From the NCBI GenBank assembly GCA_017467085.1, contig JAFTSW010000039.1, forward strand, positions 1 through 39,981: 39,981 nucleotides of DNA. The letters are read 5' to 3'. Below are positions 1-39,981 of the stretch, piece by piece. The position numbers were made by a program, and so were the translations under genes. The DNA is from Clostridia bacterium (GTDB lineage: Bacteria; Bacillota; Clostridia; Oscillospirales; CAG-272). Every line of letters starts with the position of its first letter. Position 1 is the first letter of the stretch. The notes below the pieces were generated by a model. That model was not told the origin of the DNA and ran no database searches. It was given only the letters and a program-made list of their open reading frames with translations.

Positions 1-12
1 ATTGAATGTGTT

Positions 13-41
13 TGATAAAATACGCATAGAGCATTTTATCA
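13..41. repeat. 9-bp inverted repeat, AT-rich
   Basis: TGATAAAAT (13-21) and ATTTTATCA (33-41) are perfect complements around an 11-base loop. No T-tract follows on either strand, so it is not a convincing terminator. It may be an operator or the tail of a signal belonging to a gene left of the window. No protein is supported in 1-198. Confidence 0.4.
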
Positions 42-52
42 TAAAACCCTTT

Positions 53-87
53 GCTTGTCAAGACCTAAGGCGCTTTGCAAGACAAGC
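53..87. repeat. 7-bp inverted repeat with long loop
   Basis: GCTTGTC (53-59) pairs with GACAAGC (81-87) across a 21-base loop. It lies between the left edge and the terminator of the minus-strand peptidase operon. The function is unknown and the pairing may be chance. Confidence 0.25.
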
Positions 88-150
88 CGTCAGTTCATTA
101 TATAGCGCGTGCTGCGCAAAAAGAACGGTAAAACATATTTTAACGGAAGT

Positions 151-184
151 AAAAAATGCCCGACCCCCCCAAGAGGGTCGGGCA
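151..184 (-). terminator. Intrinsic terminator of the M20 peptidase operon
   Basis: Read on the minus strand, GCCCGACCC (175-183) pairs with GGGTCGGGC (158-166) and is followed by ATTTTTT (plus-strand A-run at 151-156). It lies 15 bases past the M20 stop codon, so it closes the four-gene minus-strand operon. Confidence 0.9.
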
Positions 185-198
185 AGCGCGGGGAGGGA

Positions 199-1638
199 TT
201 AGCATTCCTTTATCAAGCGAATGTAAAACTCCGCTGTGCGCTGGGCAGCCTCCAAGCGAATGCGCTCGTTGTTGCCGTGAATGGTGGCGCGCTCCTCGGC
301 AGTCAAATCCATCGCGGAGAAGCGATAGACCCTGTCCGAAATGCGTCCGTAATGACGGGAGTCGGAGCATTGTACCATCAGATAAGGAGAAACGATACAG
401 CCGCGCCAGGTGGAGGCAACCGCTGAGGCAACCTTGTCCCAGCCCTTGCAGTCGGTGCGAGAAATGCGGCTGGGGTTCATACCGTGTAAAGCCTCGATTT
501 CTACCTTCGCATCATCTGCTGCCTTTTTAAGATAGGCAAGCGCCCCCTCCATATCGTCCGCGGGATTCAAGCGAATGTTGGAAACCATAGACGCCTTAGG
601 CGGAATGACGTTAGAGGCGGAGGAGCCCTCCATCTGGGTAAAGGCAACGGTGGTACGCATCAGGGCGTTCAGCTCGCCGCCGCTCTTCTTGCAAATGGCG
701 TCAAGCACGGGCAAGAACAGGCGGATATTAGAGAAAATCACCTTGTAGAGGAAGGAGGAGTAACGCCCTAAGGTGTCGAACATCTCGGCAACGGGAGGCG
801 TCAGCTTGGCGCGGAAGGGGGATTTCAGAATACGGGTGCAGGCGGTCGCAAGCCTGTCAACGGGTGCGCCGGGCTTAGGCGCCGAGGCGTGTCCGCCTCC
901 CGATTTCACGGTGTAGCGCACGTCTAACATGCCCTTTTCCGCAATACCAATCAAGCCGCAGGGCTGCTTGACCCCGGGAAATACGTTTTCCACAACGGCG
1001 CCGCCCTCGTCTAATACAAAGGCAGGGGTAATGCCGTGGGACTCAAAAAAGTCCACAATGTGAACCGCTCCCTGACCGTTAACCTCCTCACCGCCCGAAA
1101 AGGCAAAGTAAAGGTCACTTTCGGGCTGAAAGCCCTCTGCCAAGAGATGGTCGGCGGCAAATAAAATGCCGTTAAAGGTCACCTTGGTGTCAAGGGTTCC
1201 CCGTCCCCAAAGGCAGCCGTCCTTGATAATGCCCTCAAAGGCAGGCAAATCCCAGGCGTCCTCGTTTACGGGTACAACGTCATAGTGCGCCATTAAAACC
1301 CCGGGCTCCCCCTCCGTCTTGCCCTTCCAATGGAAGAGAAGGGCGCGGTCGGGAAGGCGGTGGAGTATCAGATGCTCCGCGACGTGAGGATAGAGCATAG
1401 GCAAAGCATCAACCAGCGCTTCAAACTCCTCCTCGTTCTCCAAGGACTTGTCGCGGTAGGATACCGTCTTGAAGCGAACAAGGGTCTGTAAGCAGGAAAC
1501 GGCGCGCTCCCTGTCAAAGACCTCTTCGCCCTCTGTAACGGCGGGCTGAGGCTTGGGCTTGAAGCAAAGGGCGCGGATGATAATGACGGCAAGGAAAATG
1601 ACAATCGCCGCCGGCAGGATAAGCAGGTAGTGCCACAT
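199..1638 (-). CDS. Membrane-anchored M20 family metallopeptidase (PM20D1/CPS1-like)
   Basis: This is a zinc-dependent amino-acid or peptide amidohydrolase of the M20 family, probably held on the outer face of the membrane. Residues 1-26 form a hydrophobic N-terminal anchor. The metal and catalytic residues of M20 enzymes are recognisable: His118 in MAHYD, Asp150 in GRGTLDTK, the Glu pair 184-185 in SGGEE, and Asp210 in VLDEGG. A GGGHAS dimerisation-domain motif and a C-terminal IHGNNE stretch supply the remaining ligand. The 479-residue length suits the PM20D1/CPS1 branch rather than the shorter DapE/ArgE enzymes. It is the last gene of a minus-strand operon, 3 bases after a small membrane protein. 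An AAGGAG site precedes the start. The family is certain, the substrate unknown; the membrane partners suggest the pair handles import or export of its products. Confidence 0.9.
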   Translation of the reverse strand: MWHYLLILPAAIVIFLAVIIIRALCFKPKPQPAVTEGEEVFDRERAVSCLQTLVRFKTVSYRDKSLENEEEFEALVDALPMLYPHVAEHLILHRLPDRALLFHWKGKTEGEPGVLMAHYDVVPVNEDAWDLPAFEGIIKDGCLWGRGTLDTKVTFNGILFAADHLLAEGFQPESDLYFAFSGGEEVNGQGAVHIVDFFESHGITPAFVLDEGGAVVENVFPGVKQPCGLIGIAEKGMLDVRYTVKSGGGHASAPKPGAPVDRLATACTRILKSPFRAKLTPPVAEMFDTLGRYSSFLYKVIFSNIRLFLPVLDAICKKSGGELNALMRTTVAFTQMEGSSASNVIPPKASMVSNIRLNPADDMEGALAYLKKAADDAKVEIEALHGMNPSRISRTDCKGWDKVASAVASTWRGCIVSPYLMVQCSDSRHYGRISDRVYRFSAMDLTAEERATIHGNNERIRLEAAQRTAEFYIRLIKEC

Positions 1639-5153: not shown

Positions 5154-7439
5154 ATGATGAATACAGGCTGGAAAATGTACGCCTTGGAGGACGAAAAGGT
5201 CGTCTCTCTCGGCTTTTGCCCCAAAACCGTTACGGAGCTTGAAGGCAAGGATGTCTATACGGACATCACTCTGCCTGTTTGCTTTGAGGAAATTTTAAGA
5301 GATAACGGCGTTCTCGGTGACCCGTATTTTTCCACGAATTCGTGGGAGTATTATCGGTATGAAACGCACCATCAATGGTACTTCAAGCGCTTTGATTGCG
5401 CGCTTGAAAAGCCCGTCTTGACGCTTGAGGGGGTCGATACCTTGGCCGAGGTGTATGTAAACGGCACTTTGGTCGGCAAGACCGATAATATGTATACCCC
5501 CTTTTCCTTCCGCCTTGAAAACCTGAAAAGCAAGGATAACGAGCTTGTTATTCACCTGCCTCCCATGGTGCTTGCAACAGAGAATATAGAGGAGGAGGGG
5601 GTTGGCGCTGTCAGCTTCAAGCGTCCGGGCGTCTTTCTTCGTAAATCCATTGCATCGTTCGGATGGGATATCCTTTTGCGCACAACGCTTGGCGGTATCT
5701 GGCGTGAAATTCGTCTTGAAAACGATGAGGAGCGCATAAGCGATCTTTACGTGCATTCCGAATTGACCTACACGGGCGCCGCCATCTACGTTGATTACGA
5801 GGCCAACGTCTCGGGCGAAGGGTACGAAATTGCGGTTGAGGGCGTCTGCCGCGATTCCGCCTTTTCGGAAAGGGCGCCGCTTTCGGCGCAAAACGGCCGC
5901 TTCTATTTCTTTTTGCGCTATCCGTATCTTTGGAATATCCGCGGCTACGGCGAGCAGAATCTCTATTCCGTCAAGGCGACTCTGTATCGGAACGGTAAGC
6001 CCGTGATGGAAAAGAGCGTCCGCCACGGTATTCGCAAGGTGGAGCTTCGTCGCACCTCGCTTGTTGAGGAAAATGGGTGCTTCGAATTCCACATCAACGG
6101 CAAAAAGGTCTTTTTGCAGGGCACCAATTACGTGCCGATTGATGCCTTGAAGCACATGGATAAGGAAAGAACCTTAAAAACGCTTGAAATGACCCTTGAC
6201 ACGGGCTGCAACTCTATTCGTATCTGGGGCGGCGGCATTTACGAGTGCGAGGAATTTTATGAATTCTGCGACGAGAACGGCATCTTTATCTGGCACGATT
6301 TTATGATGGCCTGCGCCCGATATTCCAAGAGCGAGGCGTTCAGGGAAAACTTAACGCGAGAGGTCACCTATCAGGTCAAGCGTCTGCGCAACTATTCCTC
6401 CATTTGTCTTTGGGCAGGAGACAACGAGTGTGATAATATTTACACCATTACCAATGACGAGAACGGAAACCCCTATGATCCCAATACTGTCAACATCTTA
6501 ACCCGTATCACCGTACCCAAGGCGCTCTTTGCCCTTGACACCACTCGCCCGTATTTGCCCTGCTCACCCTATATGGATGAGGTTGGGCATCTCAATAAAA
6601 AGAGCTTGTCCGAGGAGCATCTTTGGGGGCCGCGTGATTATTTCCGCGGCGAGTTCTATACCAGCTATAACCCCTATTTTGCCTCCGAAACGGGCTATCA
6701 TGGTTGCTCCTCTCCCCGTGCGCTTCGCAAATTTTTGAAAAAACCTTGGCCGATTTTCGACGAGGAGGGAAGACCCACCAAGGAGTACTTGGCGCACGCC
6801 GTTTCGGTCATTGACGATTATAAATCGCCCTATGCTTACCGCATTCGTCTGATGAGTGATCAGGTCGAAACGCTCTTCGGTCATAATTTTGACAATCTTT
6901 CGGACTTCGCAAAGGCCAGCCAAATTTCGCAGGCCGAGGCCGATAAGTACTTTATCGAGCGCTTCCGTATTCGCAGAAATGAGCGCGGCGGCATCCTCTG
7001 GTGGAATATGATAGACGGTTGTCCGCAGATTTCGGATGCCATCGTCGATTATTCCATGGATAAAAAGCTTGCTTACCATTACATCAAAAACTGTCAGGAG
7101 CCGTCTGCCTTTATGATGGAGGAGGAAAACGGTAAGGTTCGTATGTTCCTCGTTGCCGACGAGCCCGAGGCCTTCCTTGCAAGCTATACCGTAACCGATG
7201 CCTATACGGGCGAGCAGATCCTGTATGGCGAGGTGACGAGCAAGCCCTATACCTCCATTCTTGTCGATACGTGGGAAGCACCGAGTGAAAAGGCCTTTTA
7301 TATCATCGCATGGACGGACGATAAGGGCAGAAAGCATCAGCACCATTACCATACCGACATCAAAGGAATTGACTATGCGCGCTATATCGCCGCCGCTGAA
7401 AAATACGGCCTTTTGCACTGGGAAGGCTTCGATGAATGA
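5154..7439 (+). CDS. Glycoside hydrolase family 2 enzyme, beta-mannosidase-like
   Basis: This is a predicted cytoplasmic exo-glycosidase that removes beta-linked mannose (or a related sugar) from oligosaccharides. The 761 residues follow the GH2 order: jelly-roll domain (about 1-190), immunoglobulin-like domain (190-300) and TIM barrel (from about 305). The acid/base is Glu425 in WAGDNE, a variant of the usual W-x-G-N-N-E, and the nucleophile is Glu512 in ASETGYHG. The SIRIWGGGIYE motif and the WHDFMMAC strand are typical of beta-mannosidases. There is no signal peptide. AAAGGAA stands 9 bases before the chosen ATG; the second ATG, three bases on, is equally possible. It is cotranscribed with the deacetylase-like gene 53 bases downstream. 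The family is sure; mannose specificity is inferred. Confidence 0.88.
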   Translation: MMNTGWKMYALEDEKVVSLGFCPKTVTELEGKDVYTDITLPVCFEEILRDNGVLGDPYFSTNSWEYYRYETHHQWYFKRFDCALEKPVLTLEGVDTLAEVYVNGTLVGKTDNMYTPFSFRLENLKSKDNELVIHLPPMVLATENIEEEGVGAVSFKRPGVFLRKSIASFGWDILLRTTLGGIWREIRLENDEERISDLYVHSELTYTGAAIYVDYEANVSGEGYEIAVEGVCRDSAFSERAPLSAQNGRFYFFLRYPYLWNIRGYGEQNLYSVKATLYRNGKPVMEKSVRHGIRKVELRRTSLVEENGCFEFHINGKKVFLQGTNYVPIDALKHMDKERTLKTLEMTLDTGCNSIRIWGGGIYECEEFYEFCDENGIFIWHDFMMACARYSKSEAFRENLTREVTYQVKRLRNYSSICLWAGDNECDNIYTITNDENGNPYDPNTVNILTRITVPKALFALDTTRPYLPCSPYMDEVGHLNKKSLSEEHLWGPRDYFRGEFYTSYNPYFASETGYHGCSSPRALRKFLKKPWPIFDEEGRPTKEYLAHAVSVIDDYKSPYAYRIRLMSDQVETLFGHNFDNLSDFAKASQISQAEADKYFIERFRIRRNERGGILWWNMIDGCPQISDAIVDYSMDKKLAYHYIKNCQEPSAFMMEEENGKVRMFLVADEPEAFLASYTVTDAYTGEQILYGEVTSKPYTSILVDTWEAPSEKAFYIIAWTDDKGRKHQHHYHTDIKGIDYARYIAAAEKYGLLHWEGFDE

Positions 7440-7492
7440 GGCTTAATAAGCCATTTTGAAAAGAAACATTTACAATAAAGAGGTATTTACAT

Positions 7493-8833
7493 ATGCCCAA
7501 AATTGTCTTTCGTTACGATACCGAGGATTACGTCAACGAGTTCGCCGCAGAGGGCATTCTGCGCGCCATTCGCCCCTTGGACGAGGCGGGGATTACCGGC
7601 TGCTTCGTGGTGGTTGGCAAGCTCGCCCTTGCCCTTGAAAGGTGGGGTAGATGGGATGTTATTGAGGCTCTGAAGCGCCACGAAATCGGAACGCACACCA
7701 TGAGCCATTCCGCCCATCCCACCGTCAACGAGTACACGGATTTGGAGGACTTCGAGCAAGCACTTTCGAACTTCTTGGAGGACGAGCGCGCCTGTGTCGA
7801 CGTCTTGAAGCGTGTCTTTGGCGATAATATCGCCCTTGCCTCCACCTCGGCACCGGGAAACTCTATTTCCTACGTTGCCCAATATGGCTACGCCGCGCTT
7901 GGTATTCGTGAATATCTCGGCGGCTTCACGCGGGATGAGGAGAAAAACCGCCCCATTTATTTTTGCAACGTCATCAATACCACAACCAACTATTGCCTTG
8001 ATACCGTCTATCAAAGCACGAAGGAGGAGCTTGACGCGAAAATTGAAGCGCTTGCCACAAAGGAGGTCGTTATCCTTTGTCACCATCCCGCGATGAATAT
8101 GATGCGCGAGTATTGGGACAAGGTGAACTTTGACGGCGTCAATACCCCCGAGTCCGAATGGCGTGAAAGCGCCCGCTTGACCGAGGCAGAGATGGATGCT
8201 TGGGTGGAGAACTACACCTATTTCGTCCAAAAAATCAAGAACGATCCGCGCTTTGAAATCATCACCTCCGAAAAAATTGAGGAAGCGTATTTTCCCCAAA
8301 CGGAGCGCGTCATTGATAGGGAAGTCTTGGCACAAGTGAAGCCCCAAATCGAAAAGGCGCTTTTTCCCGTCACCGACCCCGACTCCTTCTGCCTTGCCGA
8401 CCTTGTTTACGCTTGCCGTGATTTGCTTCTCGGCAAGGAAAAGCATATCTGTGGCACGGTCTTTGGCTTTTTGTCCGAGCCCTACGCCATCGCCGCCCCT
8501 CTTACCTTAACCAAGGAGGAGTTAGTAGCCGCCGCCGCGCAAATTGGTGATACCTTCCTGCCCACCGTTCTTTCCGTCGGCGAAAAGCGCTTAGGCGTTG
8601 CCGATTTCCTCCGCGCCGCGCTTTCGCTTCTCACCGAAGACGCCGAAAGCGTCACCGTTGCGCCTGCCCCTTGGCAAATCGACCTTAATCAGTTCCCTCT
8701 TTTGCGCGATATGAGCCTGAAGGGCACTTGGGTGCATACCAAGGATTTCGAGGACGCCTATATCTCCGCGCGCAGCCGCCTGCAATTCTATACAGCGCGC
8801 CTGCCCAAAGGCACCGCGCGCTTCATTTTCTGA
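7493..8833 (+). CDS. NodB-like polysaccharide deacetylase family protein with extra C-terminal domain
   Basis: The N-terminal part (about residues 1-230) resembles the NodB deacetylase fold. An RYDTEDY segment stands where the metal-binding Asp-Asp motif lies, and HTMSH supplies the two metal histidines. The usual Arg-Pro-Pro motif is replaced by STSAPGNS, so activity is less certain than the fold. The remaining part (about 300-446) has no motif I recognise. No signal peptide is seen, which suggests a cytoplasmic enzyme acting on small sugars rather than on wall polymer. It follows the GH2 gene after 53 bases with an AAAGAGG site and is followed by a strong terminator, so the two form an operon, perhaps for degrading acetylated manno-oligosaccharides. 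Confidence 0.75.
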   Translation: MPKIVFRYDTEDYVNEFAAEGILRAIRPLDEAGITGCFVVVGKLALALERWGRWDVIEALKRHEIGTHTMSHSAHPTVNEYTDLEDFEQALSNFLEDERACVDVLKRVFGDNIALASTSAPGNSISYVAQYGYAALGIREYLGGFTRDEEKNRPIYFCNVINTTTNYCLDTVYQSTKEELDAKIEALATKEVVILCHHPAMNMMREYWDKVNFDGVNTPESEWRESARLTEAEMDAWVENYTYFVQKIKNDPRFEIITSEKIEEAYFPQTERVIDREVLAQVKPQIEKALFPVTDPDSFCLADLVYACRDLLLGKEKHICGTVFGFLSEPYAIAAPLTLTKEELVAAAAQIGDTFLPTVLSVGEKRLGVADFLRAALSLLTEDAESVTVAPAPWQIDLNQFPLLRDMSLKGTWVHTKDFEDAYISARSRLQFYTARLPKGTARFIF

Positions 8834-8948: not shown

Positions 8949-8998
8949 CGCCCCAATCCCCCAAAAGCACCTCAAAAGCACAAAAATGCCCCAAACTA

Positions 8999-9027
8999 TT
9001 GACATCGGGAAGCATATGATATATAAT
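8999..9027 (+). promoter_or_regulatory. Full-consensus sigma-A promoter of the polysaccharide locus
   Basis: TTGACA (8999-9004) and TATAAT (9022-9027) are both exact consensus with the ideal 17-base spacer. A 5' leader of roughly 80 bases precedes the first gene. A perfect promoter of this kind usually needs a repressor, an antiterminator or another control to be tuned. Confidence 0.93.
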
Positions 9028-9046
9028 ATATTATAGTATATTATAA
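9027..9046 (+). repeat. Tandem 10-bp repeat at the start of transcription
   Basis: TATATTATAG (9027-9036) is followed directly by TATATTATAA (9037-9046), immediately downstream of the -10 box. One helical turn per repeat at the transcription start suggests an operator, though simple AT-rich sequence is an alternative. A second TATAAT at 9042-9047 has no good -35 partner. Confidence 0.45.
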
Positions 9047-9114
9047 TTTTGGATTCTATACCCTCCGCCAAGGACTCTTTTCGTCCCCTGCGGAGAAAAA
9101 TAAGGGAGCGCAAA

Positions 9115-10395
9115 ATGAAACCTTTCGAGAAAAAAGTCTGGCTCGCCACCCCCACGATGCACGGCGAGGAATTGGAATACGTAACGGAGGCATACAAAAC
9201 CAACTGGATGTCCACCGTTGGTGAAAACATCAACGAGGTGGAAAGAATTGCCGCGGAGAAGTCCGAGAAAAAATACGCCGTAGGACTGTCATGCTGCACG
9301 GCGGCGCTTCACTTTGCTGTCAAGCACGCGGGAGAGGTGTTGTATGGAAAGCCCGCTATCAGTCACGGCGCATTGGAGGGAAAGCGAGTTTTCTGCTCGG
9401 ATATGACCTTTGACGCCACCTTGAACCCCGTGGTGTACGAGGGCGGTATTCCCGTTTTCATCGATACGGAGGCAGAGTCCTGGAATATGGACCCCGTGGC
9501 GCTGGAGAAGGCGTTTGAAATCTATCCCGAGGTCAAGCTGGTTGTCTGCGCGGAGCTGTACGGCTTTCCCGGGCGTATCGATTTGATTAAAGGAATCTGC
9601 GAAAAGCACGGAGCTCTTTTGATTGAGGATGCCGCCGAGGCAATGGGAGCAACCCTCTTTGGGCGTCAGTGCGGCTCCTTCGGCGACTATTCCGCCATCA
9701 GCTATAACGGCAACAAAATTATCACGGGCTCTGCGGGCGGCTGTCTTCTGACCGATGATATCGAGGTTGCCAACAAGGTCCGCAAATGGTCTACCCAGTC
9801 CAGAGAAAACGCTCCCTGGTATCAGCACGAGGAGGTCGGCTACAATTACCGTATGAGTAACGTGGTGGCGGGCGTCGTGCGTGGGCAGTATCCCCACTTG
9901 GAGGAGCATATTGCCCAGAAAAAGGCAATTTATCTGCGCTATCGGGAGGGCTTCAAAGGGCTTCCCGTTCAGATGAATCCCATTGTGGAGGGAACGGAGC
10001 CGAATTATTGGCTTTCCTGTATGATTATCGACGAGGCGGCTATGTGCAAGCAGGTCAGAAGCGATAGCGAAGCGCTTTACGTGAAGGAGGCAGGAAAAAC
10101 CTGCCCAACGGAAATTTTGGAAACGCTGGCAAAATACAACGCCGAGGGCAGACCCATCTGGAAGCCTATGCATATGCAGCCTATGTACCGTATGCACGCC
10201 TTTATCACCCGAGAGGGCGACGGCAGAGCCAAAACCAACGCCTATATCGCAGGCGGCGCAAAAGGAAAGGACGGAATGCCCTTGGATATCGGCATGGATA
10301 TCTTCCACCGTGGGCTTTGTCTGCCCAGCGACAATAAGATGACCGAGGCGGAGCAGGATGCGGTCATTGAAATCGTAAAAGGCTGCTTCAAATAA
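9115..10395 (+). CDS. DegT/DnrJ/EryC1 family PLP-dependent sugar aminotransferase
   Basis: The enzyme transfers an amino group to a nucleotide-linked keto-sugar, giving an amino-deoxy sugar for the repeat unit. The PLP lysine is Lys201 in SYNGNKIITGSAGG, and Asp172 in EDAAEA contacts the pyridine nitrogen. The length (426 residues) suits the PglE/WbgX branch plus an insert near residues 310-345. The ATG at 9115 has AAGGGAG six bases upstream and starts at the conserved N-terminus; an in-frame upstream start at 9049 lacks such a site. It is the first gene after the consensus promoter and lies 18 bases before a phosphoglycosyl transferase, as in loci that start the unit with a 4-amino-6-deoxy sugar. 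The 4,6-dehydratase expected to feed it (PglF type) is not in the window. Confidence 0.88.
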   Translation: MKPFEKKVWLATPTMHGEELEYVTEAYKTNWMSTVGENINEVERIAAEKSEKKYAVGLSCCTAALHFAVKHAGEVLYGKPAISHGALEGKRVFCSDMTFDATLNPVVYEGGIPVFIDTEAESWNMDPVALEKAFEIYPEVKLVVCAELYGFPGRIDLIKGICEKHGALLIEDAAEAMGATLFGRQCGSFGDYSAISYNGNKIITGSAGGCLLTDDIEVANKVRKWSTQSRENAPWYQHEEVGYNYRMSNVVAGVVRGQYPHLEEHIAQKKAIYLRYREGFKGLPVQMNPIVEGTEPNYWLSCMIIDEAAMCKQVRSDSEALYVKEAGKTCPTEILETLAKYNAEGRPIWKPMHMQPMYRMHAFITREGDGRAKTNAYIAGGAKGKDGMPLDIGMDIFHRGLCLPSDNKMTEAEQDAVIEIVKGCFK

Positions 10396-29018: not shown

Positions 29019-29885
29019 TCAGTTGTGGTAAAACGGGCGCTTGTAATCAATGGTTTCCTGGAAGGGCGCATAGTCCTCCTTGAAAACCCTGCAAGCGTTG
29101 GCAAGCATCTCGCCTCCCAAACGGATGAAAAGCCGACCAATGCGCTCACTGGCGTTGTATGGGTCATCGGCAGAATAGGTGTTGGGGAAGTCAAGGTCCC
29201 ACATCGCGCGGGAATTGAGAAGACCTGCTTCCTTCATTCTGTCCGTTTTTTTGGTGGAATGACCGTCCACAACGCCCAGCCTGTCCATCCGAACAAGGTC
29301 AGGGCGAATGGCAAGCATCATAGAGGTTTCCATCAAATCCCCGTGTCCGCCTAAACGGTTGTTTTCCACGTAGTCGCGAAGCGCCGCTACGTCCTCGGGC
29401 AAAAGCTCGGGGAAGACGTCGTCCCCCTCCTTGTCCAGCTTCGCCACAATGTCCTTAAACTGTGCGGCAGGGAAGGCAGAAAGCACGGTAAAATCTCTCT
29501 GCTTTGCGCTGATGTAGCTCATGAAGTAGTTGAGAAAGGGAACGTTTCCACCGTGAAAATTTACAAGCACGATTTTATTAAAGCCGTTCCGTGCAATTTC
29601 GGTGCAGTAGTTTTCCAAAATGCGGAGCATCATCTTGGGCTCCATTCTGACGGCGCCATTCCAGCGCACTAAGGGGGAGCTGTCACCAAACTCAAAGGCA
29701 GGAAAGACACAAATAGGCTCTATTTCCGCTGCGGCGAAGCAGAGCGCCTCCGCCTCGTATACGTCCGTACGAACAGGTAGGTGCTGTCCGTGCATCTCAT
29801 AGCATCCGACGGGAATAATACAAACGCCTCCCGTCTTTTTGACAGCATCGTCAAACTCTTCTTCACGCAATTCAGCCCAAAGCAT
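29019..29885 (-). CDS. Creatininase family amidohydrolase (copy B)
   Basis: This is the first gene of the operon and a tandem relative of copy A. The same metal set is present: CYEMHGQHLPVRTD, NFHGGN and GHGDLMETSMML. The two proteins share roughly 60 percent of residues by eye, with identical N-terminal and metal-site blocks and differing middles (about residues 115-155), so substrate binding may differ. The ATG at 29885 has AAGGAG nine bases upstream and matches the start of copy A; a 38-residue upstream in-frame extension is rich in hydrophobic residues, runs across the promoter and is not coding. It has 288 residues. Confidence 0.88.
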   Translation of the reverse strand: MLWAELREEEFDDAVKKTGGVCIIPVGCYEMHGQHLPVRTDVYEAEALCFAAAEIEPICVFPAFEFGDSSPLVRWNGAVRMEPKMMLRILENYCTEIARNGFNKIVLVNFHGGNVPFLNYFMSYISAKQRDFTVLSAFPAAQFKDIVAKLDKEGDDVFPELLPEDVAALRDYVENNRLGGHGDLMETSMMLAIRPDLVRMDRLGVVDGHSTKKTDRMKEAGLLNSRAMWDLDFPNTYSADDPYNASERIGRLFIRLGGEMLANACRVFKEDYAPFQETIDYKRPFYHN

Positions 29886-35059: not shown

Positions 35060-36154
35060 TTATTCAGGCAACCGCTCCACGGAAAGCGTAAAGTCCCGCA
35101 GATTGATAATCAGGTCATAGGTCCCGGGCTCCTTCAGATAATGATATTCCTCGCTGCTTGTCAAAAGGGCAGAGGGAAGAACCGTTAAGGCGTATGCATG
35201 GTAGCTCTCGGCATAGAAGGAGGGAAGGGAACGGTAGCTTCTGTCTGCCGTAATGCGACAGCGGAATACGTACGGCACGTCCTCCTCTTCGGGCTGTAGC
35301 GTCACAAAGTCAGACCCGTCGTAATGAATACAGGTGTAGCTTGCCGCCTCGATGTTCTTGTGCGCAAAGCGCACAACGTAGGTTTTTCTGTTGATATAAA
35401 TATCGTAAGCGCCGCCAACGTTTGCCGAAACGAGCTTGCCCTCGCCCGAAGCGTAGGTGTCCTTGCAGGCGGAATCAAGCGTTACCTTGTACCAGCTGGT
35501 GTACGTGCGGTCGAAAAAGTTGATAGAATCCCCCGGGGCAACGCTGAAATTGCGAACAACGAACTCATCCCCGTTTTCGGGGTTGACGCTCATTTCCACC
35601 CATTCGGTGGCGGCGGTATAGATGTGGCAGTGGGGAATGGTGTAGTAAACGGGCGTTTCAATCTCCGCCTTGTATTCCATATCGAATTTCAAGGTGTCAA
35701 CGTCAAAAACAAGCTTGTAAATACCTGCCTTCTTCACGTTGATTTGAATGTCATAGCCGTCTTCCTTTTCCACCTCGGCATATTCTGTGTCGGCATCATC
35801 ACCCAAGGCGGCGTACCAGTCGTTATAGCCCTCGCCCATCATATAAAAATAATCTTTTTCATAAAAATAGAGGTTGTCATAAATGCGCTTGTTGCCCTCC
35901 AGTGTAAAATAGGGCATCTCCAAAAAGGCGCCGTTTACCTCCATCCACAAGGAAAGGCTCTCGGAGGTGTAGTAGGTCTTATCCTCCTCCAAGGTGAAAT
36001 TTTCATCCGTCACGCTGTCGGGGGTAACCGCCTCTAAATCGGCATTGTAGTCGGGCGGGGTAAAGCCGCCAAAGCCAAAATTGCAGGCGGTAAGAGAAAG
36101 CGTGCATATAAGAACCAATAGAGCGACTAAAAGGTATAGAAAAGTCTTTTTCAT
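35060..36154 (-). CDS. Lipoprotein with three repeated beta modules
   Basis: I do not recognise a named family. Residues 1-23 form a lipoprotein signal peptide with lipobox LTAC (Cys24), so the protein should be anchored outside the cell membrane. Three copies of a short module ending recur: GIYKLVFDVDTLKFDMEY (about 144-161), GAYDIYINRKTYVVRF (248-263) and GTYDLIINLRDFTLSVE (344-360). Each follows about 90 residues of strand-rich, aromatic sequence. This resembles SusE/SusF-type or carbohydrate-binding modules by pattern only. AAGGAGGG precedes the ATG. It stands alone, with its own promoter. A glycan-binding surface role is inferred. Confidence 0.8.
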   Translation of the reverse strand: MKKTFLYLLVALLVLICTLSLTACNFGFGGFTPPDYNADLEAVTPDSVTDENFTLEEDKTYYTSESLSLWMEVNGAFLEMPYFTLEGNKRIYDNLYFYEKDYFYMMGEGYNDWYAALGDDADTEYAEVEKEDGYDIQINVKKAGIYKLVFDVDTLKFDMEYKAEIETPVYYTIPHCHIYTAATEWVEMSVNPENGDEFVVRNFSVAPGDSINFFDRTYTSWYKVTLDSACKDTYASGEGKLVSANVGGAYDIYINRKTYVVRFAHKNIEAASYTCIHYDGSDFVTLQPEEEDVPYVFRCRITADRSYRSLPSFYAESYHAYALTVLPSALLTSSEEYHYLKEPGTYDLIINLRDFTLSVERLPE

Positions 36155-38556: not shown

Positions 38557-38952
38557 TCACGCCTGACTGCCGTGTCCCGTATAGACACGGGCGTTGCGCT
38601 CCTCGTCGGACACCAGCCCGAAGCTGACGGAAATAGCACCGTTCACCCGCTCCATCGCCGCAGCGTCCAAGTGTCCCATTTTCTCACGCAGACGCCGCTT
38701 GTCTAAGGTGCGGATTTGCTCTAACAGCACCACGGAGTCCTTGGCAAGCCCCACCTCATCGGCGTAAATGTCAATGTGGGTGGGCAACTTGGTTTTGCCC
38801 ATACGGCTGGTAATGGCGGCGGCAATCACAGTGGGGCTATATCGGTTCCCAACGTCGTTTTGTACAATCAGAACGGGGCGAATACCCCCCTGCTCGCTTC
38901 CCACGACGGGGCTCAGGTCAGCATAATAAATATCTCCTCTTTTTATGTTCAT
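38557..38952 (-). CDS. mazF: MazF/PemK family endoribonuclease toxin (EndoA/NdoA type)
   Basis: A sequence-specific mRNA interferase. The 131-residue protein follows Bacillus subtilis EndoA closely: [57 protein letters not shown] and LDKRRL. It has a C-terminal tail of about 15 residues beyond that homolog. I chose the ATG at 38952, which has AAAGGAG ten bases upstream; the longer in-frame extension to 39120 reads lysine-rich and crosses a terminator. No MazE antitoxin gene is adjacent on either side, and the gene upstream (DUF378) is cut off by a terminator. An antitoxin may lie elsewhere, or the enzyme may act as a regulator alone. Confidence 0.93.
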
Positions 38953-39467: not shown

Positions 39468-39860
39468 TTAATTTTCAAAATGAAGCTCGGGTGCGTCCTT
39501 AAAGCAGCGCCGTAGGCGCAATAGCGCCTTTTTTTCGATGCGGCTGACGTAGGAACGGGAAATATGCAGCATCGCCGCCACCTCTCGCTGGGTCTTGGGG
39601 GGATGCTTGCCAAGCCCGTAACGCAAAACAATAATCTGTCTTTCCCGTTCGTCCAGAACGTCCCGCACCGCTAGTAGCGCCCGTTCGGTATGTATGCGCA
39701 TATCCAGCTCCTCCAAGGCGTTGTCCTCGGTGTACACGATGTCCCCGTAGGTCAGGGGATTGCCGTCACGGTCCACGTCAATGGTTTCGTTGATGGAAAC
39801 CTCGCAGGACAGCTTCTTTTGGGAGCGAAAAAACATCAGAATTTCATTCGCTATCCTCAC
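39468..39860 (-). CDS. sigK: C-terminal half of sporulation sigma factor SigK (SpoIIIC-like), apparently split
   Basis: The 130-residue reading frame matches the second half of SigK: NEILMFFRSQKK (end of region 2.4), IDVDRDGNPL, then region 4 with DERERQIIVLRYGLG, KTQREVAAMLHISRSYVSR and IEKKALLRL. A full SigK has about 230-250 residues; regions 2.1-2.3, needed to bind core polymerase and melt promoters, are missing. A TAG stop directly precedes the GTG at 39860, and no other frame in the 121 bases upstream encodes the missing half. The break coincides with AATGA (39844-39848). As in Bacillus subtilis spoIIIC, the fragment would become functional only after a DNA rearrangement in the mother cell. 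It is not expected to be active on its own. Confidence 0.85.
   Translation of the reverse strand: MRIANEILMFFRSQKKLSCEVSINETIDVDRDGNPLTYGDIVYTEDNALEELDMRIHTERALLAVRDVLDERERQIIVLRYGLGKHPPKTQREVAAMLHISRSYVSRIEKKALLRLRRCFKDAPELHFEN
39844..39848 (-). other. Candidate recombination core AATGA at the sigK break
   Basis: On the minus strand the codons for Asn-Glu in ANEILM contain AATGA. The skin element of B. subtilis is known to excise by recombination between five-base repeats inside sigK, which I remember as this same sequence at the same Asn-Glu position. The other copy lies outside the window. Confidence 0.55.
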
Positions 39861-39981
39861 CTAACGGCTCGTAAAAATCCTCTAAAATTTCATCGGGCTT
39901 TTTGTCGGAATTGCCGTTATTTCCGCTATTTCCGTCGGGTGGAGTGGGAAATTCATAGTCTCCATCGTTGTGGAAGAGGTA
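39844..39981 (-). CDS. 3' end of an unidentified gene running into the sigK fragment
   Basis: An open frame enters from the right edge and stops with TGA at 39844-39846, giving a 45-residue tail. It contains a low-complexity part (DGNSGNNGNSDKKP) followed by an acidic end (EILEDFYEPLGEDSE). It overlaps the sigK fragment start by 17 bases, and its stop codon lies inside the AATGA core. It does not resemble the N-terminal half of SigK. If the sigK break is a skin-type junction, this is the terminal gene of the inserted element. Its identity cannot be read from this much sequence. Confidence 0.5.
   Translation of the reverse strand, partial: YLFHNDGDYEFPTPPDGNSGNNGNSDKKPDEILEDFYEPLGEDSE

What the first reader, a model, noticed from the sequence alone, without database searches (positions are those of the whole stretch)
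39468..39981. sigK is interrupted at an AATGA core: likely end of a skin-like element
Seen: only the C-terminal half of SigK is encoded, starting inside region 2.4. A stop codon lies directly upstream, AATGA sits at the break, and none of the three upstream minus-strand frames holds the missing half, which argues against a simple frameshift. Known: in Bacillus subtilis (48 kb skin) and Clostridioides difficile (about 15 kb) sigK is split by an element that a serine recombinase excises in the mother cell. Inference: the DNA right of the window is a sigK intervening element, probably undescribed in this lineage.
Basis: partly seen in the sequence, partly recalled or inferred. Interest (0 to 1): 0.78.

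Follow-up and report, generated by a model that had tools for sequence, protein, structure and literature searches.

The report
Mobile element splitting the sigK gene
In this gut bacterium a key spore-making gene is cut in two by a mobile DNA element that would have to be removed to make the gene whole, and the same kind of element sits at the same spot in many related species; it looks like a new, mobilizable relative of the known 'skin' elements.

Summary
Confirmed and extended. The window is a whole contig that ends 133 nt past a clean break in sigK. The missing N-terminal half lies on another contig of the same genome, broken at the same AATG core; no intact sigK was found in the genome. 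The last 135 window bases are the 3' end of a large serine recombinase (LSR) gene, and the two contig ends together form one palindromic attP. The element itself is missing from the assembly. The same break was found in 24 genomes of 15 genera of the family. One relative has a complete 6.1 kb element on one contig; another carries relaxase, MobC-like and RepA_N genes beside attL, so at least some of these are integrative mobilizable elements. The window's element ends are identical to those in a species whose SigK halves are only 53-61% identical. Two features look new: attP lies inside the LSR reading frame, so excision would fuse LSR to a ~200-aa double-HTH stretch while it rebuilds sigK; and a conserved ~60-aa ORF near attL, with a sigma-E-like promoter in 8 of 9 loci, is my candidate excision factor. 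Excision, its timing and both protein roles are inferred.

The parts
39468..39848 (-). 3' part of sigK: 126 codons from NEILM to the stop
   Evidence: continues the N-half on contig C11:133-462 (-) of the same genome
39844..39848 (-). recombination core AATGA; crossover most likely in AA (39847-39848)
   Evidence: AATG shared with the N-half side; 6 of 16 C-sides read AACGA and G090's N-side reads AAACC, which leaves AA as the common part
39849..39873 (-). element arm of attR, pairs with the arm on contig C11 to give a palindromic attP
   Evidence: 16 of 24 positions; 0 of 20,000 shuffles
39844..39981 (-). 3' end of the element's large serine recombinase gene (45 codons ...YEPLGEDSE and the stop TGA made in the core)
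   Evidence: 135 of 135 bases identical to the end of the complete LSR gene in G354

Best explanation
sigK is interrupted by an integrative element that uses a large serine recombinase and the sigK codons CIQ|NEILM as attB. Shown: the split gene, matching attP arms, an LSR gene ending at attR, no intact sigK found here, the same arrangement in many relatives, and mobilization and replication genes in one relative's element. Inferred: in the sporulating mother cell the LSR, made from a vegetative-type promoter, is turned to excision by a small directionality factor made from a sigma-E-type promoter; sigK is rebuilt and the element leaves as a circle, while the forespore keeps the interrupted gene. 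In vegetative cells, rarer excision would let the circle be mobilized to other species, where the LSR inserts it into their sigK. In the circle the LSR frame runs on across attP into a double-HTH stretch, so one crossover assembles two composite genes.
For: Both halves and no other SigK in the genome; joined attP palindrome; LSR domains Resolvase, Recombinase, Zn ribbon; complete element between the halves in G233; relaxase, MobC-like, RepA_N in L068; identical ends in hosts with divergent SigK; in 16 C-halves and 20 N-halves listed the sigK frame is open to the core; dN/dS about 0.1 in both halves against G048, though most of that divergence may predate the insertion; one MAG (G006) holds the empty and the occupied site with 126 identical bases; small ORF with sigma-E-like promoter; spoIVA over and spoIIID just under their cut-offs in the genome.
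Against: The window's element is not in the bin: no Recombinase-domain match and each end occurs once. No attP junction in 24 genomes. G006's two states could be two strains. The mobilization genes are seen in one element only (L068), and in G354, whose ends are identical to the window's, none is visible in the 1.38 kb left and about 4.2 kb right stretches. The strict sigma-E-like motif is absent from 14 of 16 sigK upstream regions. G091's small ORF lacks the motif. No RNA or protein data.
Confidence: 0.85

Rival explanations
1. The element is a parasite that has killed sigK. The host has lost SigK-dependent sporulation, and excision is only occasional mobile-element excision with no developmental role.
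For: Excision in sporulation is not shown; many hosts are MAGs with no spore data; the element is clearly mobile.
Against: Both halves keep open frames in the genomes examined and show dN/dS about 0.1 against G048; insertion always at the same codon; the minimal G233 element has kept LSR and small ORF but no mobilization gene; sigma-E-like promoter before the small ORF.
Confidence: 0.15
2. The LSR is not fused to the HTH stretch. The HTH protein is an ordinary separate gene that happens to begin near attL, translated from an internal start.
For: An in-frame ATG lies at codon 36 and a TTG at codon 29 or 35 in the common types; even G090 has a GTG or TTG at codon 9. G233 and G091 have short extensions of 28 and 13 residues, and L074 has a frameshift.
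Against: Residues before the first ATG are alike between classes that are 37-44% identical overall; codons 8-35 show dN/dS 0.14-0.22 in three comparisons that share one sequence (28 codons, small); in G090 the first ATG is codon 99, inside the HTH part; the stretch is in the LSR frame and open from the core in G354, G270, G311, G239, L068, G090 and G164.
Confidence: 0.25
3. The contig break and the missing half come from misassembly or from mixed bins, with no element in this species.
For: MAG with 83 contigs; G201 and G082 do look like mixed bins.
Against: Two independent contig ends give one palindrome; joined SigK matches the intact G048 ortholog without a gap at 86%; complete arrangement on one contig in G233.
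Confidence: 0.03

Closest known systems
skin element of Bacillus subtilis (SpoIVCA, RDF Skr)
   Same: Splits sigK; large serine recombinase; core AATGA, as papers give for B. subtilis (PMC10745906, passages); a 64-aa RDF under sigma-E (PMC6957869, passages) resembles my candidate in size and promoter type.
   Different: 48 kb defective prophage against, in G233, a 6.1 kb element without phage genes seen, and in L068 mobilization genes; LSR frame open across attP. That the codon of insertion is the same as in B. subtilis is from recall, not tested.
skinCd of Clostridioides difficile (CD1231, CD1234)
   Same: LSR plus RDF under sigma-E and SpoIIID decide mother-cell excision (PMC5025042, passages).
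   Different: Prophage-like; inserted at another site than skinBs and in opposite orientation, and C. difficile SigK has no pro-sequence (same passages), whereas most N-halves here begin with a hydrophobic stretch.
Phages and islands in sigK: Alicyclobacillus phage MMB025, C. perfringens phiS63, B. cereus group islands
   Same: Insertion in sigK by a recombinase (PMC13141910, passages; PMC10745906, passages).
   Different: Infectious phages or 21-39 kb islands; no relaxase mentioned in the passages I saw.
gin element in gerE of Bacillus cereus
   Same: Sporulation gene split by an element without phage genes, excised by LSR plus RDF (PMC5595907, passages).
   Different: 28.6 kb, three serine recombinases, other target gene.
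Streptococcal IMEs with serine integrases
   Same: LSR, relaxase, insertion inside genes; in IME_Spy2096_SNF2 the recombination site lies within the integrase gene (PMC5357655, passages).
   Different: Targets named there are traG, maff2, snf2, rumA and intergenic sites, not a sporulation gene.
Engineered serine integrase-RDF fusions
   Same: One chain with LSR followed by a second domain (PMC5737554, abstract; PDB 9dxd in the list).
   Different: Artificial; the HTH stretch here is not shown to be an RDF.

Membership tests
sigK intervening (skin-type) element | sigK in two parts separated by an element | tested here: met
   Both halves on two contig ends of this genome; both on one contig in G233
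sigK intervening (skin-type) element | large serine recombinase encoded by the element | tested here: met
   3' end in the window, identical over 135 bases to a full LSR gene in G354
sigK intervening (skin-type) element | precise excision rebuilds sigK | tested here: inconclusive
   Joined frame matches intact orthologs; empty and occupied site in one MAG, G006; no attP junction in 24 genomes
sigK intervening (skin-type) element | excision in the mother cell during sporulation | not testable with these tools
   Only a sigma-E-like promoter before the candidate RDF
integrative mobilizable element | relaxase / mobilization genes | tested here: inconclusive
   Met in L068; not seen in the visible parts of G354 or in complete G233; the window's own element is unread
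integrative mobilizable element | own integrase | tested here: met
   LSR at attR in 14 of 14 right ends, most of them partial; L068's own attR end was not seen
prophage or prophage-like skin | phage structural genes | tested here: inconclusive
   None among the ORFs scanned from G233, G354, L068 and G255; most of the interior of the other elements is unread

The most novel reading that the evidence does not exclude
Excision is a double gene-assembly switch. The crossover that rebuilds sigK also fuses the recombinase in frame to a double-HTH stretch encoded across attP. The fused protein no longer reinserts the element, or represses its own promoter (an inverted repeat TATGTTAT...ATAACATA overlaps the -10 in 4 of 7 LSR genes), so sigK stays on in the mother cell, while in a new recipient the same fusion governs integration and plasmid-like upkeep. 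Engineered LSR-RDF fusions favour attL x attR over attP x attB (PMC5737554, abstract), but that the HTH part is an RDF is not shown, and if it were one, integration after transfer would need another route.
Probability: 0.25. Interest if true: 0.85.

Novelty: new variant of a known kind. Interest (0 to 1): 0.72.

Why it matters
The sigK elements that I found in print are prophages or islands described in Bacillus, Clostridium and Alicyclobacillus. Here a sporulation gene is the landing site of elements that, at least in one case, carry mobilization genes and that move between genera of uncultured gut Clostridia. The set runs from mobile (relaxase, Rep, LSR-HTH) to minimal (LSR, small ORF, cargo, 6.1 kb), so the path from parasite to developmental switch can be read from sequence. 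It predicts a new excision-factor family and a recombinase whose C-terminus depends on integration state, both testable in E. coli. It also warns that gene-presence scoring of spore formation in MAGs may miss split sigK.

Tried and rejected
Simple frameshift or decay: rejected, the N-half lies on another contig with a matching att arm. Element inside the bin: no PF07508 match; each of the two ends occurs once. Viral contigs: left and right end patterns gave nothing; the left-end protein matched 62 stretches by pattern, none a relative. Plasmids and phages: no relative of the left-end protein or of the small ORF; LSR relatives at best 48.6% (Ruminococcus albus plasmid) and 37.8% (Terrisporobacter phage); relaxase relatives 23-26% in the eight rows listed. 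attP junction: 0 of 24 genomes. G201 and G082 first looked like genomes with both states; their full-length sigK differs from the split one, so I dropped them as evidence for excision. Contig ends as proof of a circle: rejected; 14 of 20 left ends stop 71-139 bases after the core start, but one element shared by many hosts would break assemblies in the same way. Sigma-E-like motif at sigK: strict form 2 of 16, looser form 7 of 30 against 12 of 1,500 shuffles, so it is suggestive only. G354 right-end ORFs: no Pfam or NCBIfam match for the three ORFs beside the LSR gene, so I do not call that element conjugative. Structure prediction of the HTH stretch was not available.

Full report
OBSERVATION. 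The window is the whole of contig C8 (39,981 bases) of a 1.94 Mb, 83-contig assembly. Its right end holds, on the minus strand, 126 codons of SigK beginning at NEILM; 133 bases beyond the AATG core the contig stops. A SigK profile search of the genome finds the missing N-terminal half on C11:118-447 (-), a 10.9 kb contig that stops 128 bases beyond its own core. Read together: TGCATTCAA|AATG on the N side and GATAGCG|AATGA on the C side. The joined protein's best family is SigK NF004471 (261.2 bits, cut-off 252); it is below the TIGR02846 cut-off (255.2 against 298.65). Intact SigK of G048 in the same genus aligns over residues 1-229 at 86% in one piece. Against G048, dN and dS are 0.12 and 1.17 for the N-half, 0.15 and 2.16 for the C-half; much of this may predate the insertion. 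A SigE-like gene is separate at C37 (best families SigE, below their cut-offs). spoIVA passes its cut-off and spoIIID matches just below its own. In the genus search 47 of 69 genomes, by my count of the rows, have one full-length SigK match at 57-86% identity; six (G000, G002, G005, G006, G007, G014) show the break at the same residue.

THE ENDS BELONG TO ONE ELEMENT. With AA as centre, the two contig ends form an imperfect inverted repeat, 16 of 24 positions complementary. The best other centre in the joined stretch gives 13, and none of 20,000 shuffles of one arm reaches 16. A comparable repeat is seen in the 11 genomes for which I paired both ends. The crossover is most likely in AA: 6 of 16 C-sides read AACGA and G090's N-side reads AAACC.

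THE RECOMBINASE. The last 135 window bases are the 3' end of an LSR frame. In the 14 right ends that frame ends ...(E/A)DSE exactly at the core. Where the host core is AATGA, its TGA is the LSR's stop, so the host gene supplies it; where it is AACGA the frame runs on for some 24 to 35 residues. The G354 LSR (588 residues to the core) has Resolvase, Recombinase and Zn-ribbon domains. Seven full LSRs are 51-89% identical. The window's right end is identical to that of G354 over 135 of 135 bases and the C11 left end over 132 of 132, although that host's SigK halves are 61% and 53% identical to the window's. G354 is probably the roe-deer MAG of L065, whose contig has the same length and match. Left ends are also identical over the compared bases in G247 (124), G343 (115), G426 (113), G181 (104) and G005 (98), and differ in G014 (66 of 71), G395 (110 of 127) and G311 (99 of 132). 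Right ends: G201 135 of 135, G343 123 of 124, G426 119 of 120, G007 123 of 124, but G239 80 of 135, G395 99 of 135, G002 71 of 124, G006 74 of 103. The element therefore seems to have moved recently between species.

DISTRIBUTION. Left-end pattern (up to 1 mismatch): 13 of 395 family genomes, 10 of 71 genera. Right-end pattern (up to 3 mismatches): 14 of 395, 11 of 71 genera. The union is 20; with 4 more from the genus search this makes 24 genomes in 15 genera (tallies). Among the 24, both halves are found in 13, only the N-half in 6, only the C-half in 5; G201 and G082 of the last group also hold a full-length, different sigK and look like mixed bins. Three further genomes (G091, G162, G164) turned up through the small ORF and are not in these counts. 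A scan of 84,980 species genomes with the left-end protein gave 18 loci, titled as Clostridia or Oscillospiraceae MAGs; where the title names a source it is a deer, sheep or rabbit. These are lower bounds, since most contigs stop near the core.

WHAT THE ELEMENTS CARRY. G233:C4 holds the complete arrangement: N-half, core at 29833, about 6.1 kb, core at 35968, C-half. Inside are an LSR, a GH39-type glycosidase, a lipoprotein-like protein with a metallo-beta-lactamase-type match and a small ORF. L068 (rabbit MAG, CANQOI010000057.1) carries on one contig the sigK N-half, core, a double-HTH frame, DUF6061, the small ORF, an IstB-like ATPase, RepA_N, relaxase and NikA/MobC-like genes: a mobilizable element with plasmid-type replication genes. 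For the window's own element this is inference: of the identical-ended G354 element only 1.38 kb (left) and about 4.2 kb (right) are visible, with no relaxase in them.

attP INSIDE THE RECOMBINASE FRAME. In the circle GAA would be followed by TGC..., and the LSR frame stays open for 200-210 codons in the seven elements read far enough that have this stretch (G354, G270, G311, G239, L068, G090, G164), encoding HTH_3-type domains. G354, G270 and G239 on one side and G090 and G164 on the other are 37-44% identical between classes, residues before the first ATG included. In G090 the first in-frame ATG is codon 99, though a GTG or TTG occurs at codon 9. For codons 8-35, dN/dS is 0.14-0.22 in three comparisons that share G354 (28 codons). 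G246, G395 and the C11 end of this genome are open as far as read (40, 41 and 43 codons). Against: G233 and G091 stop after 28 and 13 codons, and L074 has a frameshift. So integration probably severs an LSR-HTH fusion. A recombination site within an IME integrase gene has a precedent (PMC5357655, passages).

CANDIDATE EXCISION FACTOR. An ORF of 57-65 residues counted from its conserved motif, transcribed towards attL, occurs in 5 of 5 left ends read far enough (G354, G270, L068, G233, G090), the minimal G233 element included. It has no Pfam match. A search of 146 genomes gave 5 matches in 4 genomes: three lie behind a sigK N-half (G090, G091, G164), one is upstream of the LSR at the attR of a split sigK (G162:C115), one is on a G162 contig with no sigK seen. 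Upstream, ATA-N17-CATANANT occurs in 5 of the first 5, against 0-4 of 400 dinucleotide shuffles each. Of 7 such motifs (N16-18) in 69,594 strand-bases of element DNA, 5 are these; none is upstream of 7 LSR genes. A relaxed form (CATANNNT) is present in 3 of the 4 further loci, not in G091, so 8 of 9 in all; for those three I ran no shuffles. C. difficile sigma-E promoters have an ATA -35 motif and a -10 like that of sigma-K, for which CATATAAT is quoted (PMC3789822, passages). In skinBs and skinCd an RDF under sigma-E decides timing (PMC6957869; PMC5025042; passages). The RDF assignment is by analogy; I put it at about 0.6. The LSR genes instead have a TATAAT-type -10 (seen by eye).

DYNAMICS. 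In G006 one contig runs N-half, empty site, 126 bases of C-half; another begins in the element and shares exactly those 126 bases from the core on. Both states were therefore in that sample, in one population or in two strains. No attP junction was found in 24 genomes.

LITERATURE. Searches that combined sigK with relaxase, integrative mobilizable element, integrative conjugative element, or intervening element plus gut-taxon terms listed no title or abstract start on such an element. The library is open-access PMC only, the last search showed 10 of 75 papers, and of the listed papers I looked at passages in PMC6957869, PMC11913394 and PMC11536998 only.

Noticed in passing
L101 (G354), L102 (G239), L104 (G395), L099 (G255), just upstream of the LSR gene: Inverted repeat TATGTTAT-N15-ATAACATA overlapping a TATAAT-type -10, in 4 of 7 LSR upstream regions; 0.275 hits on average in mononucleotide shuffles of the same 53 kb. 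Possible operator.
   Followed up: partly
small ORF starts in L058, L068, L098, L148, L149: At the start position where G354 has ATG, five of nine small-ORF loci have ATT or ATC behind a strong GGGG/GGAG ribosome-binding site: possible non-AUG start.
   Followed up: no
L099 (G255:C32) 7042-7731 and 8961-9464 (-): Two DUF3990 genes upstream of the LSR in the G255 element, plus an endonuclease/phosphatase-family protein.
   Followed up: no
L147 (G091:C36) 3-830 (+): ORF that looks by eye like the end of a glycogen phosphorylase directly beside the small ORF and attL; not searched.
   Followed up: no
L009 (G000:C11), just upstream of the sigK start: ATA-N17-CATATGGT inside a terminator-like hairpin before sigK, also in intact G048; the ACAAGC in it recalls a SpoIIID box (recalled).
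   Followed up: partly
L148 and L149 (G162:C115, G162:C143): Two near-identical copies of the small ORF in one genome, the second on a contig with no sigK or LSR seen.
   Followed up: no
L068 5140-5437: This sigK N-half lacks the hydrophobic N-terminal stretch that most other N-halves have, so possibly no pro-sequence.
   Followed up: no
window 38557-38952 (-): MazF-like gene (NF007386, 32.5 bits, far below its cut-off of 120) two genes downstream of sigK.
   Followed up: no
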